This document shows, in pieces, positions 43,590 to 52,861 of a DNA stretch of 64,000 bases (within the stretch, counting starts at the first letter, position 1; each line of letters begins with the position of its first letter). The stretch covers positions 1-64,000 of the forward strand of contig JADHZB010000341.1 in assembly GCA_015657535.1 (NCBI GenBank). Reading direction: 5' to 3'. The stretch is from Nephromyces sp. MM_2019. Its lineage: Eukaryota; Apicomplexa; Aconoidasida; Nephromycida. Made by a program: the position numbers and the translations under genes. The notes beneath the pieces are model-generated. The model worked only from the letters and a program-made list of their open reading frames with translations, did not search any database and was not told where the DNA came from.

Positions 43590-44809
43590 TTTGGTTCAGG
43601 GATGAAGAAGAAGGTTGTAGAGAACTAAGAAATGTCTTTTATAGGTATCTTGTATAACTTATACAAAATTTAGTCCGGCAAGGTTAGTAAAGAATAATAT
43701 AAAATAAGAATTTTGGAGCTATTTATAACCTAATTACAGAGATTCAATATGAGGGAGTGAGAAGTTGTTAATAAAAAATCAAAAAGAGTAAGTTGTTACC
43801 TAGATTGTTATGGTCATAATTTATATGATCTGTCACACTGACCCCATGAGGATGTTTCAAAGAGTATAAAACTATTTAAAACTCAATGAAAGCTAAAAGA
43901 AGAATGCTAATGCATGATTATTCTACAGCAATTTGCTTTTGCATATTAATTAATGAAGTTTTATGTTAGTAAAATTCTAAATATTACACACTACTTAACT
44001 TCAATTCTATGTGGTAGCTATGCCATGTTACGCTCGTCTGCTTAGATAGATAGAGCATGTAATAAAAATATTAAGACTAAACTAGCTTAGAGTTTGATTA
44101 AAATAGCCAGCAAACTTTTAACTTTCATTGTCATAATAACTAAGCTAGCGTTAGTAAATTTCACTCAGGTTGCTTTCACTCACAGTTAGTGCCAATTGTA
44201 TACGTTTTCTATCTTAGTACCCGTAACGTACTCCACTTAAAATCCACTCAATCGATGACATTTAAATCTATGTATCTTAGAGCTTTTATTATCAAAAATG
44301 AACCATTATCTAATTGTCTTAAAACAATAAGAGTAATATACAGTTTGCATGCTCAAGTGCATGGCTAAACTTCTCCTAACCCCTATTTAACTACTGCATA
44401 CCACCACAACGTGTCAATTAAATTACATCTTAAGCCCCAGTTTGTGTGTAGTAAACACAATTCTACAAGATTCACCTAGCAATACTTGAAATCTAGAGGA
44501 TCTTCATTAGTTGTTAAAGTGTCTATACCCAAAAACCTGATGTAATTCAAAAACGTTTATGTTATAACTTGAGTAAAATTAAATTCCTAACTTGTAAATT
44601 TTTGTCAAGTGTATTCTTAACTAATTCATAATTATATTTTTTAATTTCGCGCTAAAAAAGTTATGCACAAACATAGCTCTGCTATGAGCACAATCCTTTA
44701 AATTTACAATAAATTATGTATACCTCTAAGATATTATTAGCAACACTTAATTATTTTTATATAAAAAACAATTAAGCCCATGAGTTTCGTATTATAATGA
44801 GTTTTAAAG
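43590..44809. other. intergenic region between divergent genes
   Basis: About 1.2 kb between eL27 (-) and the METTL14-like gene (+), serving both promoters. No supported exon or RNA gene. Confidence 0.55.
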
Positions 44810-46318
44810 ATGAATACCGAAACTCCAGACAACCAACCTCCATTATCTTCTAATGTACAGCCAAATCTAATCCCTAATAGACCTCATCATCACCATCCAC
44901 CACAAAACTATCTTTATGGCATGAAACAACACTATGGGGACGAACCTTCACCGTTTATGATGAATCAGCAAAATCAACCTACACACCCACAGCCACATCA
45001 TCATAACTATGGTCCGCCGCAAATGATGAATATGAGAGGTCCACCTATCAGTCATCACACCCCATATCACCCAAGAGGGTATGGGCCTAATTTTCATATG
45101 CAGCGGCCACCCATTAACCAGCCTCAAGGGAGCCATTGGAATGAAATTCCATATTCTCATCCCTATCCTGTGCTCCCAAGATTCAGAGAGAGCCGACCCC
45201 CACCACATAACTGGATGCATCCACAAGGAAATCTACATCATCAGCAAACTGGATATAACGACAACCCTAGGAATGAAAATACACATGATGACAAATACCA
45301 AAGTGCTTTTGACATCAATGAAAGAGGTAGAGAACGTTTACAAAATGACTATAATCAGCATTTTATAGACACTGGTGAGAGGCCACAAAACTTTGTCCGA
45401 GATGCTGATGAAGCAAAACGTTTCGAAGAGTATCCTAAACTTGAGCGTCTTATGCAACTTAAGACAGATTTAGTTAAAAAACGAGCAACTCCTGCCCAGC
45501 ACCTTCAAACTAACCTGAAAACATTTGATCTAAGCTCACTTGGAACAAAATTTGACGTTATTCTAGTTGATCCACCTTGGTCAGAATATTTTGATAGAGT
45601 ATGGGGCGATTTTTCACCTAATGAAGACCTAACCCCATGGACATTAGATGAAATGATGTCTTTGAAACTTGATCTTATAGCAGAAACTCCATCATTCTGC
45701 CTTTTATGGTGCGGAGTGACGCACCTTGAAGAAGGGCGAATGCTGTTAAACAAGTGGGGATTTCGTCGATGTGAAGATATTTGCTGGTTAAAAACCAACA
45801 AAAGAGTATCAACAAATCGTAAAAAGCTAGAAAAAGAAGGGATAACAAACAAAAGATCAAGTATTATCCATGATGATAGATCTTTTCTACAAAGAACTAC
45901 AGAACACTGCTTGATGGGCATAAGAGGCACCGTCCGCAGATCACAAGACACACATTTCATTCATGCTAACTTAGACACAGACGTGATACTAGAAGAAGAA
46001 TTTCCAGAAATTGGAAGCACAGCAAAACCAACAGAGCTATACGATGTTATTGAAAGATTCTGTTTAGGTCGGCGGCGTTTAGAACTCTTTGGTACAGATA
46101 GAAATATAAGGGATGGTTGGTTAACTGTTGGGAAAGACGTAAGCTTTAACAACTTTGACTCTCAAAAGTATTTTTCATGGTTTGAAGGTGATTTAGCTTG
46201 GCCAGAGGCTCAAAATTTTATAGGTGGCAAATATGCCGGTACTACGCCTGAAATTGAAATGTTGAGGCCTAAATCACCTCCTCGTTCTACGAAGGTAGAT
46301 GAAAGCTCAACAGAATAA
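44810..46318 (+). CDS. METTL14: METTL14-like MT-A70 family protein (m6A mRNA methyltransferase complex)
   Basis: MT-A70 protein of the METTL14/MTB group, the RNA-binding partner of METTL3 in nuclear N6-adenosine methylation. It is one uninterrupted 502-residue frame, notable among intron-rich neighbours. Residues 1-150 are rich in His, Pro, Asn and Gln (HHHHPPQ, PHHHNYGPPQMM) and likely disordered. A helix (FEEYPKLERLMQLKTDLVKK) leads into the methyltransferase fold. Motifs: FDVILVDPPWSEYFDRVWGD (DPPW at 254-257), TPSFCLLWCG, KWGFRRCEDICWLKTNK, TTEHCLMGIRGTVRRSQD, HANLDTDVILEEEFPEIG, KPTELYDVIERFCLGRRRLE and NIRDGWLTVGKDV. The EHCLMGI(R/K)GTV(R/K)RS and GRRRLELFG signatures place it with METTL14 rather than METTL3. 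Animal METTL14 has EPPL at the DPPW position, whereas this copy keeps the residues used for catalysis in METTL3. Confidence 0.93.
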   Translation: MNTETPDNQPPLSSNVQPNLIPNRPHHHHPPQNYLYGMKQHYGDEPSPFMMNQQNQPTHPQPHHHNYGPPQMMNMRGPPISHHTPYHPRGYGPNFHMQRPPINQPQGSHWNEIPYSHPYPVLPRFRESRPPPHNWMHPQGNLHHQQTGYNDNPRNENTHDDKYQSAFDINERGRERLQNDYNQHFIDTGERPQNFVRDADEAKRFEEYPKLERLMQLKTDLVKKRATPAQHLQTNLKTFDLSSLGTKFDVILVDPPWSEYFDRVWGDFSPNEDLTPWTLDEMMSLKLDLIAETPSFCLLWCGVTHLEEGRMLLNKWGFRRCEDICWLKTNKRVSTNRKKLEKEGITNKRSSIIHDDRSFLQRTTEHCLMGIRGTVRRSQDTHFIHANLDTDVILEEEFPEIGSTAKPTELYDVIERFCLGRRRLELFGTDRNIRDGWLTVGKDVSFNNFDSQKYFSWFEGDLAWPEAQNFIGGKYAGTTPEIEMLRPKSPPRSTKVDESSTE

Positions 46319-46903: not shown

Positions 46904-49900
46904 TCACTTATTGGAAAACTTTACAAGGGAAAATCCATCCCAAGCTGGAATTATTATCTAAAATGAGTTGAATGTGGTATGCATTAATATTAATAAACAA
47001 TATGCAAAAAGCAAGAAGCTGTTTTTATTCTATTTCATTATAAATAAGATGAAAGAGGCTTTTAAAATTTGAAAATACAGCTCACCTCTTCGATATTTTT
47101 ATCGTCCCTGAACCTTTCGTGTAATCGTTTGTTGCTTGAGTGAATTGAATTCATTCTTTGAGTGTTATGTGATTTTTGGGGTCGGTTTCTCCAGAGAGTG
47201 TTGTCGATGATGAGAAGGCCATTTTCCTTCGACAGAAGTGGTGGATTTGAATATAAGATTACGTCTATATAACTGTTGTAAGCCTTTTTATCAGCATCTA
47301 AAAATATCAAATCAAATGGTATATATGGAGAATTGTCCAACTCTTTATCGTCAAAAAATCTGCTATTTTCTCTTAAATTTTTTGAATAAGTTTTTAGGAA
47401 TGATAAAGCCTGTTCATTTACAATATTAATCTGCCTATTATACGGAGATTCTGATATGAACCTTCTGGCTAATTTCAGACAATCTTGTCCAGTTTCAATA
47501 GTAATTAATTTTGAATTCTCGGATAATCCTTCAGCAAGGTAATGCGCTAAAGATAATATTCAATTTTAAATGAAATCGTGTGAAAAATTCTTATGAGGAA
47601 CGATAGTAGCTTTATAATGAATATGGGAAATCTATAATATTTTAAGGTTATATGTGTAGTATAGGATAATTCAATAAACATTTTAAAATATAATAAGTCA
47701 GTTGGTATGAAAAATTTTGTGTGCATTACATTTTCAAGTATGATCTAAAAATTACATTGAAAGAAATTCACATATAATTAAATACAGACAAATATTTGGA
47801 GAATAAAAATAAAAGAATAAATCTGTAATAACCTGATAATCCTGTAAACGTTCCAATATCCAATATTAATTTAGGTTTAGTTAAACGGCTTAAAAATGAT
47901 AAAAAGCAACCTTTTGAAGGCTCACTAGCCATTTGACTTGAGCTTGGGTAAAGCTCGTGTGTGCTAGTTTGTAAACTTTTGATAAGGGGACTCAATGAGT
48001 TTTCTGACCATCGATTAGCCTCCATTTCCATTGTTATTGTACCAATTCCTCGTGAAAGTAAATGGCCCTTGAAATGATTATCTATAGAAATCCTTGAATT
48101 GTTGCAATAATTTTCTATGGGTGTGGGTAATCTTTGGGGTGCCGCTGCGTCTTTGTTGTTAACTTTCTCTAAAGATGATGATAGCGACTCCTTGGTATCC
48201 AAATAATCTGTTTTTAGATGTTCTAGGGAATTATCATCAGCATGTCTTACTTGTTTTGAAAGAACTTTCACTTGTTTCGAATTTTCTTCCTTACATTGTT
48301 CAGAACAGCAACCCATGTGTTTTTCATTGCATTTATAACATTGTAGGAATCTTTGGTGGCACTTACCATTATTGCAATTGATATATTCATTACAAGGTTC
48401 TCCACATTGATTACACAATCCATAAATATCATCTGTTATGCGCTCACTGAATCTATTGTCGAAAACATAATTTGATCCCTTGTATTTTGAGGTTATTTGA
48501 TTCCCCTGAGATTTTATATTTTGTATGTAATTGTGGTAGGCTACTATCCCACCATCTAATCTGTAAACATTATTGAAGCCTAGTTTCTGAATTGCAAAAG
48601 CAGCAGTCTTTACGCATCGGATACCTCCAGTGCAATACATCAAGATTTTACGGTCTTTTGGAATACCACTGAGTGCTGTTTTCAATGCACCATTTTGCCC
48701 AAATGCCTCTCTATACATCGTCGTATTTAGTGGACAAGCATCTTCAAAATGCCCTATATCAAATTCATAGTTGTTTCTACAGTCTAAGATAACTTGATCA
48801 TGTTTATTATTGATTTCTTCATGCCATTCAGGGGGTGATAAGCAATCACCTGACCTATTGAGGTCAAGTGTTTCATTCCATCCATCCGCAACTATATGAG
48901 GTCGATGGCGAATGTGTAGTGTTGTGAAGGGTGGTTGATGGCGTTTCATGTTAATAGAATTATCCTGAGGTTGTGATTCTCCATACCAATATTCATCATG
49001 TGGGATTACGCGATCTAAAGCTATTGAAAGCTTATGATCGAAAAGGATTGACAAGGCAGCGTTGAATTTATCAAGAGATGAGCATGGGATTGCTAGTTGC
49101 GCATTTATTCCTTCATTTGCAACATAAACTCTACCAAGAATTCCTAATGAGTTCCATATGTATGATAATTTTTTGATAAGCCAAGTTGGTTTCTCAATTT
49201 TGAAAAATGAATAAAAGGAAAGCATATGATAGGAGAAAGTGGTACTTATCTCCTTATGCGTGTTTAACATCAGATCATCTAAAGATTTAGGCCAATATTT
49301 GGTACACAAGTCAAGATTTAGAACCACTTTCCATTTTTCTGGATCGAATTTTATTGAGCTTCCCTTAACCTGCTTAAACTGGTTCTTAGTGTTCATTGGA
49401 ATATCTCCCACATTATCCCTAGAAATTAAATCAAAAGTGCACTCCCAAAAATATTTTATGTCCTGACTATTTTTTATCTCTTGGTGTATTTCATGAGGAG
49501 TGTGAGCTTTAATAGGGATTAGTGAAAAAGTTTTCAGAGTAGGTACTTGTGATTTTGATAATGCAGGAATTGCATCAAAGCATGCCTTATCAAGGTCCTT
49601 CGGGGCAACCTTATCATCCGAGTACAAAAGCTGATTTGAATAAAATATTCTACCCCTATGATTCCGTGATTTAATAGCCAATAAATTTTTCAACGAATTA
49701 CTCAGCTTAATCCTTATGGGTAGTAGCGGTAAGTGTTGATCAATGTTGGTGTCGTTGGATTGGTGTCCTATGATTATATATGATAACTTAGCATTGTGGT
49801 CGTTTTGAATCAGCCTTGATGAATTTTGGTTTTCATATCTTATGTCCAATGGTGGATAGTAGTCTAATTTGTGTGATATAGTGGGGTAATTAGGCTTAAT

Positions 49901-49990
49901 TTCGAATCCTCGTAAGTAATTTGAATAATATGAGGTTATCAAGATAAAGTAGTATCCAAGAATAGGTAAGTATGCGCATTCCCACTGCAT
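46904..49990 (-). CDS. TrhO (UPF0176) - O-methyltransferase fusion; candidate tRNA 5-methoxyuridine synthase
   Basis: Three exons (49990-47833, 47546-47086, 46957-46904) join in phase to 890 aa. Residues 1-25 are hydrophobic (YLPILGYYFILITSYY), like a signal or leader; 26-220 are unrecognised. Residues 221-330 match the TrhO N-terminal domain (LGRVYVANEGINAQLAIP). Residues 395-490 are a rhodanese domain (QVILDCRNNYEFDIGHFEDA) with the TrhO catalytic loop MYCTGGIRC (Cys453). Residues 526-566 are the family's Cys-rich tail (CNQCGEPC to CCSEQC). After a 110-residue linker, 660-890 is a COMT-type methyltransferase: SAM motif ILDIGTFTGLSA (709-720), LITIETG, FDLIFLDADKKAY (metal Asp), LLIIDNTLW (Asp-Asn ligands) and C-terminal IIIPAWDGFSLVKF. 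In bacteria TrhO hydroxylates U34 and TrmR, of this methyltransferase family, makes mo5U34. The fusion suggests both steps in one chain. Substrate and location are inference. Confidence 0.85.
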
Positions 49991-50497
49991 CTTAAATTCT
50001 ACGATATCCGAGTAACTTTTAGCATTTAAAAACTTTCTATTAAATGTTTTAAAAAATACATAGATGTTGCAATTTTTTTTATCATTTTGTTAACAGACAC
50101 TATATCTTAGATTCAGATCTTTTGAAATGTTTCAAGTAAGGGCCTGTAGAAACTCGAAATACTAATTGGAATAAGTGAAATTTGTAGTGAGATTAATCAA
50201 GTGTCTTCTTATCTAAATTTGCATATGTTCCAGAGGCTCAGATTTATCTTGTTGTATATATAAAGCATAAATCAAGCACAATAGTATAGTCTTATCTTTA
50301 CAAAAGGAGTCTAGAAACTAATTTTTTCCTCATCTGTTACTTTAAGTTTGAAATAATCTCAAATAAATTATTATGAAATAATAGATTTTTAGTGGCAACA
50401 TAATCAATGTTTAATGATTATGTTAAATGTATTCACTTGAATAAAATAAAACATGAAATAATATTATCTTTTCTGAATATTTTATCCATGGAATTCA
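49991..50497. promoter_or_regulatory. shared upstream region of the fusion gene and organellar RF1
   Basis: 507 bases between the start codons of two divergent genes. It is the only place for both promoters unless 5' introns exist. AT-rich; no named element recognised. Confidence 0.4.
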
Positions 50498-52861
50498 ATG
50501 AAAAGGTTTAACTTGTTCAACACAACATTTAAGCCTATAAATCTCTTATTAAATATTAAAAGTAAGGACTTTTCACATTTTTATTCTTCTAGATGCAATT
50601 ACACTTCATCATCCACACATGCAAGCAATGGACTAAAATCGTTAATAAAGAATTATGGAAAGTACTATTATCCAAATCTATCAAATAAAGAGTTACTTTC
50701 CGAAAAGTTGAACTTAAGATTCCCCCACATTCAACAGCGAAATTTCGATTCTCTAATTGATTTGATAAATAATTGTAATACTATTCAAGATGATATAAGT
50801 TTGATAAAATTTATGCTAAAGGAGCAAGCGGAAAAAGGGGGGCAATCAGATGATATTTTACTGACAACTTTAGAGATGCAGTATAATCAACAACTTGATG
50901 AGCTATCACAACATCTGATACAAAATAAAGATATGTTCCTAACATTTAAGGAAAAGAAGTATTTCGGATTACAAGTTGATCCTAATTTCCTAGTAATGGA
51001 GGTAATAGAAGCAAGTTTTATAATAAAAATTAAAACATTGGTACTTGAAATTTTATTATTTATATTTTTATCGATAAATTAAACAACTCTAAGGCTTTAT
51101 GCCGTCATATATAGACTCTTTTAAAGTTCTTTAAATCCATATAATTTTTTCATTTAAATCCTTAGATTCGCCCAGGTGTAGGTGGAGATGAGGCCTGTTT
51201 ATTCGTTAGTGATTTATTAAATATGTATAAATTAGCTTGTGAAAACTTCAAATGGAATTTTTCAGTTCTCAATTTTATAAGCAGCGAAGAAAAGGGTGGC
51301 TGCAAAGAAGCGATAATTGAAATATCTGGTTTGTATATACATAATATAAATAACTATAATTCCCAATATATTAGAAAATTTTAAGCTACCAGATAAAAAT
51401 TTTAGAAAGCTAACAAATTTATATAAAAACTAATTTATTCACACTTTGAATAATACAATTATAAAAAGTTAAATAACTATAGAAACTTCATTATCCATCA
51501 CTGGTTCGAATTCAGTAATTTGAATAATGCTAACAAGCATTATTATTTCTATGTTAAATTTGATTTAAGGTGACCAAGTTTTTTCTAAATTAAAATTTGA
51601 AAGTGGAGTTCATCGGGTGCAAAGGGTACCAATAACAGACAGACAAGGTAGGATACACACTTCAACGGCTACAGTAGTCATTTTACCCAAAGCTGATAAA
51701 CTTTCAGATGGTAAACCAATCAAATTCATCTAATCTTAGCTTCATTTGACAATATTCGGCATTGGATTTCAATCTATTTAATAAGAATTTTATTGGTTTA
51801 TTGCATCTCATTTTATGTTTTTAATTTTTATTACTTTTAACAAGCATTATTTTCGGTTTTAAGCTTCTAATTATTGATAAAACATTAGATCAATTGAAAT
51901 CTGGAGATTACAAAGTTGAGACTATGAGATCAAGTGGACCAGGTGGACAGAGTGTCAACAAATCTGAGACTGCAGTCAGAGTAATTCACATTCCAACGAA
52001 AATGTCTGTTGTTGTTAGGAAAACTTCTAGCCAGGTAATATATATATGATTCTATAAATATTTTTTATTTTAGTCAAATTTAATATGAGATAAATAAAAA
52101 ATATTACTAATTTATGGTATATATATAGTATTTATAGCGAACTTAATCATGCGTCATAATTGTTTTTAAATTGAGCTCAGATACAAAATAAGCAATTAGC
52201 AATTGAAATACTACGCTCGAGATTACTTGAAAAAGAAATGATAAAGTATCAACAGGTTGTTATATCTAAGATAACTTTTAAAGGCACCTTATATATCGAA
52301 ATAAACTATATATATTTAGATTTAAATAGAGCATCTCAATCTAGATCCAGTTTATTGCACATTGACAGGGATATAAATGTTCAATAACAATTCAATATGT
52401 TTAAAATATATACAGGCTGAAATAATAAATCGAATTACCCAGCGAGGTACAGGTGATAGAAGTGAGAAAATTAGAACTTACAATTTACCACAAAAAAGAG
52501 TTGTTGATCACCGGTGAGAATTTATATTTTTTGACTACCTCTTTTATATTAAGTACGTAATTTTATAAAAATAAATACAGTATTATTATATTCTAATGAA
52601 TCAACTTTATATTTATAATATAAATAATGTTCATAGTTCATTAAAGCCATATCCTCATACAACCTAAACTCAATAATTATATTTTCCTTGGTTTCCTTTT
52701 TGTACTAAAGCTGCAAGGCTAATTCAATTGATGCTGAAAACCTTTTAAAAACAGGAGAGGGATTAAATAATATTATCGAGGAGCTTTACAATATAGATCA
52801 AGAACATATTCTAGAGCATATCTTAGAATCATTAAATGAGATAATAGGCTCTCAAATGTGA
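50498..52861 (+). CDS. organellar peptide chain release factor 1
   Basis: Bacterial-type class I release factor that cleaves peptidyl-tRNA at UAA/UAG in an organelle. About ten exons. The N-terminus ([20 protein letters not shown], then [12 protein letters not shown]) is basic and Ser/Asn-rich, suiting a mitochondrial or plastid transit peptide. Then come a helical domain ([15 protein letters not shown]), [20 protein letters not shown], the codon-recognition segment [20 protein letters not shown] and the catalytic GGQ in [19 protein letters not shown]. The C-terminal part has [31 protein letters not shown] and a final helical exon ending in TGA at 52859-52861. The tripeptide Pro-Ile-Thr is the RF1 PxT motif; RF2 has SPF there. 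The exon after 52700 follows a less certain junction. It is head-to-head with the tRNA-modifying fusion gene. Confidence 0.9.

What the first reader, a model, noticed from the sequence alone, without database searches (positions are those of the whole stretch)
46904..49990. One-chain TrhO + O-methyltransferase: a predicted bifunctional tRNA 5-methoxyuridine (mo5U34) synthase
Seen: a full UPF0176/TrhO module (VANEGINAQ, MYCTGGIRC, Cys-rich tail) is followed in the same spliced chain by a complete COMT-type methyltransferase (DIGTFTG, DADK, DN). Known: in bacteria TrhO makes 5-hydroxyuridine at U34, and TrmR (YrrM), an O-methyltransferase of this family, converts ho5U to mo5U. They are separate proteins there. 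Inference: the fusion channels both consecutive steps and would be a eukaryotic mo5U34 enzyme. I know of no described eukaryotic fusion of this kind.
Basis: partly seen in the sequence, partly recalled or inferred. Interest (0 to 1): 0.9.

Follow-up and report, generated by a model that had tools for sequence, protein, structure and literature searches.

The report
Predicted one-protein apicoplast wobble-uridine modifier
An apicomplexan gene joins, in one predicted spliced protein, a TrhO-type tRNA hydroxylase and an O-methyltransferase, and would likely make the wobble base 5-methoxyuridine in apicoplast tRNAs, where one U34 tRNA often has to read a whole four-codon box; the same fusion occurs in Eimeria, oomycetes and algae, and was noted in print in 2019 for two oomycetes and a diatom.

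Summary
Three predicted exons (49990-47833, 47546-47086, 46957-46904, minus strand) give an 890-aa chain: hydrophobic N-terminus, an undescribed N-terminal domain, a full TrhO module, and an O-methyltransferase (OMT, Pfam Methyltransf_3). The fusion is not chance: 80 of 114 database hits carry both modules in this order (oomycetes, a diatom, red algae, Eimeria), as do all 11 named Eimeria and Cyclospora proteins. The novelty claim fails: Sakai et al. 2019 already reported the fusion in Phytophthora and Phaeodactylum and used it to find TrhO. The OMT half groups with Bacteroidota OMTs, not with Firmicute TrmR, in the best tree (an AU test cannot exclude TrmR); the TrhO half is also nearest Bacteroidota. 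New here: the apicomplexan members; signal-peptide-like N-termini in 8 of 12 of them against presequence-like ones in oomycetes; and a fitting substrate. Pooled over three incomplete apicoplast contigs of this assembly, seven four-codon boxes have a U34 tRNA (one doubtful other call), while 53-64% of those codons end in U. Best reading: a likely apicoplast-targeted bifunctional mo5U34 synthase. No RNA, transcript or activity was measured.

The parts
46904..49990 (-). whole spliced gene, predicted 890-aa TrhO-OMT protein
47833..49990 (-). exon 1 (2158 nt): N-terminal region, N-terminal domain, TrhO module, linker, methyltransferase up to motif I
47547..47832 (-). intron 1 (286 nt, GT..AG)
47086..47546 (-). 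exon 2 (461 nt): rest of the methyltransferase with metal ligands D803 and D834/N835 (by alignment)
46958..47085 (-). intron 2 (128 nt, GT..AG)
46904..46957 (-). exon 3 (54 nt with stop): C-terminal end, AWDGFSLVKFSNK
49916..49969 (-). residues 8-25: hydrophobic N-terminal helix, signal-peptide-like
   Evidence: Kyte-Doolittle 12-residue mean 1.87 at residue 8; helix 8-25 in the model (low pLDDT)
49307..49738 (-). residues 85-228: N-terminal domain shared with algal fusions (no Pfam family; beta-grasp/PB1-like by eye)
   Evidence: weak profile match, E 5.5e-4 among 21 sequences; same order of strands and helices in models of a relative and of the window (the window's model has low confidence there); Pfam scan without a family
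48278..49234 (-). residues 253-571: TrhO module (UPF0176_N, Rhodanese with C453-T-G-G-I-R-C, Rhodanese_C with Cys pairs)
47834..47995 (-). N-terminal part of Methyltransf_3 including DIGTFTG
47089..47538 (-). Methyltransf_3 positions 62-188, second exon

Best explanation
This gene encodes a single predicted protein with a TrhO module followed by an O-methyltransferase, and it likely makes 5-methoxyuridine at the wobble position (mo5U34) of apicoplast tRNAs in two consecutive steps. Shown by sequence: the domain order, the conserved TrhO active-site loop, the conserved O-methyltransferase metal ligands, the conservation of the fusion in coccidia, stramenopiles and red algae, and U34 tRNAs for seven four-codon boxes pooled over the apicoplast contigs of the same assembly. 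Inferred: the TrhO module uses O2 and its loop cysteine to hydroxylate U34 to ho5U; the methyltransferase uses SAM and a divalent metal to methylate the new 5-hydroxyl; the hydrophobic N-terminus sends the protein to the apicoplast; mo5U34 lets one tRNA read A-, G- and above all U-ending codons of a four-codon box. That the fusion hands the intermediate directly from one site to the other is untested; it may only keep the two activities together.
Against: No activity, no nucleoside data, no localisation. The methyltransferase half is long-branched and in the best tree not in the TrmR clade. In the 80 kept bacterial loci TrhO lies within the held flank (up to 6 kb) of the OMT gene in 1. One search, given 36 of those 80 genomes, found TrhO over the cut-off in only 20 of 36. 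In the TrhO tree the window does not form a clade with Eimeria and Cyclospora. Two unnamed proteins close to the Eimeria one (P0125, P0126; 62-65% identical over 63-64%) list no methyltransferase domain, perhaps cut short. The P. falciparum tRNA LC-MS study names ho5U as expected but not detected and does not mention mo5U in its main text; its authors consider apicoplast tRNA too dilute (PMC6171970, search of the text and section 5). 4 of 12 apicomplexan models lack a hydrophobic N-terminus. ARAGORN also calls an 88-nt tRNA-Val(AAC) on contig C318, which would not need mo5U. The apicoplast contigs come from a mixed-species assembly and two of the three contain long runs of N, so which of them belongs to this nucleus is unknown and the tRNA sets are incomplete; no single contig shows all seven U34 tRNAs.
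Confidence: 0.6

Rival explanations
1. The fusion is active only as a hydroxylase: the TrhO half makes ho5U34 and the divergent methyltransferase half has another substrate (small catechol-like molecule) or only binds SAM or tRNA.
For: The methyltransferase half sits nearer to OMTs of other kinds than to TrmR in the best tree; its best PDB sequence match is 2hnk (1e-17) against 2e-4 for TrmR 5zw3; the apicomplexan copies are long-branched. A member of the same OMT family is fused to an unrelated enzyme in P0114.
Against: The fusion is kept across distant lineages with motifs of both active sites, both halves are nearest to the same bacterial phylum, and a small-molecule OMT would gain little from sitting on a tRNA hydroxylase (inference). 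The AU test does not exclude a common clade with TrmR.
Confidence: 0.17
2. Same chemistry, other place: the enzyme acts on cytosolic or mitochondrially imported tRNA, not in the apicoplast.
For: Oomycetes have no plastid (general knowledge) and yet carry the fusion, with Arg-rich presequence-like N-termini in 7 of 10 models (by eye), so the enzyme is not tied to plastids. The window's N-terminal hydrophobic stretch is modest (1.87).
Against: Signal-peptide-like N-termini in 8 of 12 apicomplexan and 3 of 8 other stramenopile-type models; P. falciparum mitochondria lack tRNA genes (PMC6171970); cytosolic tRNAs read four-codon boxes largely with I34 (general knowledge).
Confidence: 0.15
3. Rhodanese-type sulfur transfer: the N-terminal module is a sulfurtransferase and not a tRNA hydroxylase.
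For: Rhodanese fold with a CxGGxR loop; some source annotations name such proteins 'predicted sulfurtransferase'.
Against: UPF0176_N and Rhodanese_C flank the rhodanese domain, the TrhO equivalog cut-off is passed, and the closest solved structure is a TrhO bound to tRNA. E. coli TrhO makes ho5U34 in vitro (PMC6599085).
Confidence: 0.05
4. Gene-model artefact: TrhO and methyltransferase are two genes joined in silico.
For: No RNA-seq for this organism; exons joined by inspection of splice sites.
Against: The unspliced exon-1 frame already contains TrhO plus the first part of the methyltransferase; 80 relatives, some of them single transcripts, have the same chain.
Confidence: 0.02

Closest known systems
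TrhO-TrmR (yceA-trmR) fusion of Phytophthora sojae, P. ramorum and Phaeodactylum tricornutum (Sakai, Kimura and Suzuki 2019, PMC6599085; passages and section 13 read)
   Same: Same two modules in one protein; P0043 (P. sojae) and P0038 (P. ramorum) are among the hits of the window protein.
   Different: There a comparative-genomics clue, called bacterial; the passages read report no test of a fusion protein, no apicomplexan, no targeting and no N-terminal domain. The window protein has a hydrophobic N-terminus and an extra N-terminal domain for which the ten oomycete models examined have no room (TrhO starts at residue 3-65).
TrhO (YceA/YbfQ, oxygen-dependent tRNA U34 hydroxylase)
   Same: All three Pfam domains, CTGGIRC loop, basic strand R361/R363 at the place of the tRNA-binding K/R pair (inferred from alignment), Cys-rich tail.
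   Different: Stand-alone in the bacteria examined; here fused, and nearest to Bacteroidota TrhO.
TrmR (YrrM), tRNA 5-hydroxyuridine O-methyltransferase (5zw3/5zw4, 8k1f)
   Different: The fusion's methyltransferase half groups with Bacteroidota OMTs in the best tree; sequence match of the window to TrmR is weak (2e-4).
Bacteroidota OMTs (for example L023, L059, L084)
   Same: Nearest bacterial relatives of the methyltransferase half (97/82); many of the genomes that hold the nearest OMTs also carry TrhO (20 of 36 examined).
   Different: Function not known from these calls; not fused, and beside TrhO in 1 of 80 loci.

Membership tests
TrhO | UPF0176_N, Rhodanese and Rhodanese_C in order | tested here: met
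TrhO | NCBIfam TrhO equivalog NF001133 over its cut-off | tested here: met
   175.4 against 170 bits, in two stretches
TrhO | loop residues essential in E. coli TrhO (C200, T201, G203, R205) | tested here: met
   C453, T454, G456, R458
TrhO | O2-dependent hydroxylation of U34 | not testable with these tools
   needs enzyme assay or tRNA mass spectrometry
TrmR | Methyltransf_3 domain with D/D/N metal ligands | tested here: met
   PF01596 99.9 bits; D803, D834, N835
TrmR | groups with characterised TrmR in a tree | tested here: inconclusive
   best tree groups it with Bacteroidota OMTs (97/82); constrained clade with TrmR not rejected, p-AU 0.277
TrmR | methylates ho5U34 in tRNA | not testable with these tools
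   needs enzyme assay
TrhO-TrmR fusion of stramenopiles | TrhO followed by OMT in one chain, one fusion clade | tested here: met
   80 of 114 hits in this order; methyltransferase halves of 19 of 22 fusion rows incl. window one clade 95/86; the other 3 (P0058, P0084, P0087) fall outside in that tree, but one clade is not rejected (p 0.277)
apicoplast-targeted protein | signal peptide plus transit peptide | tested here: inconclusive
   hydrophobic N-terminus by Kyte-Doolittle in 8 of 12 apicomplexan rows; no targeting predictor or imaging at hand
PB1 domain (N-terminal domain) | match to PF00564 | tested here: inconclusive
   1 of 13 members at E 0.09; fold not searched on its own

The most novel reading that the evidence does not exclude
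Eukaryotic organelles of bacterial descent run their own 5-hydroxyuridine chemistry: a three-domain enzyme, put together from a Bacteroidota TrhO and its partner methyltransferase, goes to plastid or apicoplast in algae and coccidia and to mitochondria in oomycetes and makes mo5U34, so that one tRNA reads a four-codon box. The methyltransferase half, with its Bacteroidota relatives, would be a second class of tRNA ho5U methyltransferase beside Firmicute TrmR.
Probability: 0.45. Interest if true: 0.75.

Novelty: new member of a known kind. Interest (0 to 1): 0.5.

Why it matters
Apicoplasts translate with very small tRNA sets, for which wobble and 'superwobbling' by unmodified U34 are invoked together with tRNA modifications (PMC12069591, passage). 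A resident mo5U34 enzyme would mean that some apicoplasts handle four-codon boxes by chemistry, in an O2- and SAM-dependent way, and that lineages may differ. It would place an ho5U-type modification, described as specific to bacterial tRNA (PMC10516636, start of abstract in the listing), in eukaryotic organelles, and it names a Bacteroidota OMT group as candidate ho5U methyltransferases, which is directly testable in laboratory bacteria.

Tried and rejected
Looked for a described fusion: the first literature search led to Sakai 2019, which ends the 'undescribed' claim. Searches that found no paper: methoxyuridine with apicomplexa, TrhO with apicoplast, rhodanese with O-methyltransferase, tRNA and diatom; the library is open-licence PMC only. 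Ryu et al. 2018 (TrmR) is not held.

Gene neighbourhood in bacteria as support: rejected, TrhO within the held flank in 1 of 80 loci (some loci are cut short by contig ends, and the 80 are the best of 563 in a capped list).

Independent second fusion origins: P0058/P0084/P0087 fall outside the main clade in the methyltransferase tree but one clade is not rejected, and in the TrhO tree P0084/P0087 fall inside the fusions, a join flagged there as two long branches meeting, so I do not claim it. P0099 (reverse order OMT-TrhO, source unnamed) does not join the fusions' methyltransferase clade (p 0.024) but may be a read-through or assembly artefact; not used as evidence.

N-terminal domain: PB1-like by eye, no Pfam family. 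The window's own model was not searched.

Organism: not named by any tool. Cardiosporidium cionae (57 Mb, 34.4% GC, 2,213 contigs, PMC7737231, passages) does not fit 48.3 Mb and 1127 contigs; three apicoplast genomes (SufB 72-78% identical) fit a mixed infection such as Nephromyces (guess).

Full report
What is there. Exon 1 lies in an open frame of 773 codons that runs through the whole TrhO module and into the methyltransferase as far as the SAM motif DIGTFTG; exons 2 and 3 supply the rest. Pfam finds UPF0176_N, Rhodanese, Rhodanese_C and Methyltransf_3 in that order, all above cut-off, and NCBIfam's TrhO equivalog passes its cut-off narrowly (175.4 against 170 bits). In the 48.3-Mb assembly the UPF0176_N and Rhodanese_C domains match once each, and the only two Methyltransf_3 matches are exons 1 and 2 of this gene; these searches ignore introns.

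Is the fusion real and old? A protein search gave 114 hits (only the 7988 candidates sharing most words were scored). With profiles built here, 112 of the 114 have a TrhO match, 83 a methyltransferase match, 81 both; 80 have TrhO first and one (P0099) the reverse. Named carriers include Phytophthora, Pythium, Aphanomyces, Peronospora, the diatom Mayamaea, Phaeothamnion, Ectocarpus (partial), an ochromonad, Chrysophaeum, the red algae Gracilaria and Porphyridium (name cut short in the listing) and Eimeria tenella; some rows are MMETSP transcripts, so the fusion exists as one mRNA in relatives. A second search from the Eimeria protein gave 24 rows; 11 are from ten Eimeria species and Cyclospora, all with the methyltransferase domain, while two unnamed near relatives (P0125, P0126) list none. 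Searched anywhere in the chain, the loop pattern C[TS]GG[IV]R is in 78 of the 80 fusions, a DxDK-type pattern in 78 and DN[TVMI]L in 75.

What is already known. Sakai et al. 2019 (PMC6599085; [quoted passage not shown] ramorum and Phaeodactylum tricornutum, calling them bacterial species, and they used this as a clue to the enzyme. They also note TrhO homologs in eukaryotes and suggest an xo5U-type modification there. So the architecture is not new. I found no paper on it in apicomplexans (open-licence PMC only). A survey of coconut lists two TrhO-like proteins, one of them predicted in the chloroplast, against ho5U (PMC10298058, passages).

Where the halves come from. In a careful tree of 53 methyltransferases the window joins Eimeria and Cyclospora (97/90), within a clade of 19 of the 22 fusion rows (95/86), next to 12 bacterial OMTs, 11 from Bacteroidota and one from Acidobacteriota (97/82); the four TrmR-type structures form another clade. 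A quicker tree of 77 rows agrees, with weaker support. Three fusion rows (P0058, P0084, P0087) fall elsewhere in the careful tree. AU tests do not reject a clade of fusions with TrmR (p 0.277), nor one clade of all fusions (p 0.277), so 'not TrmR' is a best-tree result only. The TrhO halves, with six stand-alone eukaryotic TrhO, join 18 Bacteroidota TrhO at 100/97 (61 rows; one locus, L116, was too short and dropped); five other rows that I labelled Bacteroidota fall outside that clade (one of them is from Balneolota), few other phyla were sampled, and the window does not pair with Eimeria there. The named bacterial rows among the best 120 hits of a TrhO-half profile are Flavobacterium, Dysgonomonas, Prevotella and a Bacteroidia bacterium (7245 hits in all). 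One search, given 36 of the 80 genomes that hold the nearest OMTs, found TrhO over the cut-off in 20 of 36 (24 of 36 at E 0.001 or better); six of the twelve without any match are Bacteroidales by the names in their record titles. The two genes are not neighbours there (1 of 80 loci). My inference is that eukaryotes took a TrhO and its partner methyltransferase from a Bacteroidota-like donor and joined them.

Place of action. The other 4 apicomplexan models lack the stretch and may be cut short. The assembly holds three apicoplast genomes: sufB by Pfam, and rpoB-, rpoC-, tufA- and clpC-like frames recognised by eye; nine of the ten fetched pieces have 13-21% GC and the tenth 30%. Their SufB proteins are 72-78% identical, so at least three lineages are mixed. 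Their detected tRNAs for seven four-codon boxes carry U34: Ser UGA and Gly UCC on all three contigs, Thr UGU on C318 and C1009, Pro UGG on C318 and C1112, Val UAC, Leu UAG and Ala UGC on C1009; Arg has ACG (C1009). Against this, ARAGORN also calls an 88-nt tRNA-Val(AAC) on C318, and parts of C1112 and C1009 read N, so no contig shows the full set. In open frames of at least 180 codons, 64%, 57% and 53% of codons of those seven boxes end in U and 1-2% in C. Such U-ending codons would have to be read by the U34 tRNA, which is what ho5U derivatives help with in bacteria (start of Sakai abstract). Neither MnmA nor MnmE was found in this assembly, which could be due to introns.

What remains open. 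The P. falciparum tRNA study names ho5U as expected but below detection and does not mention mo5U in its main text (PMC6171970); P. falciparum was not named among the hits. No activity, localisation or transcript of the window gene was tested. The N-terminal domain (about residues 85-228) matches a profile of algal fusions weakly (E 5.5e-4; Cyclospora 8e-5; E. tenella 0.012; 21 sequences), shows the same order of strands and helices in two models and has no Pfam family.

Verdict. A real, conserved fusion of known type, extended here to apicomplexans with a coherent apicoplast decoding hypothesis. The bifunctional mo5U34 reading is likely; the apicoplast placement is plausible; the claim of an undescribed fusion is withdrawn.

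Noticed in passing
G000 contigs C1009, C1112, C318 (L013-L022): Three distinct apicoplast genomes in one assembly, SufB 72-78% identical, in-frame TGA in frames of all three: a mixed-species apicomplexan sample.
   Followed up: partly
P0025/P0135 and P0062/P0136 (Pythium): Oomycetes carry a stand-alone TrhO beside the fusion by consecutive locus tags; in P. oligandrum the two share long identical stretches, as if by gene conversion.
   Followed up: no
P0105, P0107-P0111, P0113: Another eukaryote-type TrhO fusion: UPF0176/rhodanese with a pseudouridine synthase domain (PF00849).
   Followed up: no
P0099: Reverse-order OMT-TrhO protein whose methyltransferase resembles Legionella, Coxiella and Synechocystis OMTs; fusion, read-through or assembly artefact not settled.
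   Followed up: partly
P0114: A sugar-cyclase-like protein (looks like a mycosporine pathway enzyme, recalled) fused to an OMT that groups with cyanobacterial OMTs.
   Followed up: no
window 49738-49307 (minus strand), residues 85-228: Undescribed N-terminal domain shared by algal and apicomplexan fusions, strand-helix order like a beta-grasp/PB1 fold.
   Followed up: partly
whole assembly G000: No MnmA (PF03054) or MnmE (PF12631) match, although other apicomplexans are recalled to use MnmA in the apicoplast; introns may hide them.
   Followed up: no
window 44801-46318 (+) and 50477-52387 (+): Neighbours: an MT-A70-type adenine methyltransferase-like frame (DPPW motif) and, opposite to the fusion gene, a release-factor-1-like gene in exons ([10 protein letters not shown] motif); both identified by eye only.
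   Followed up: no
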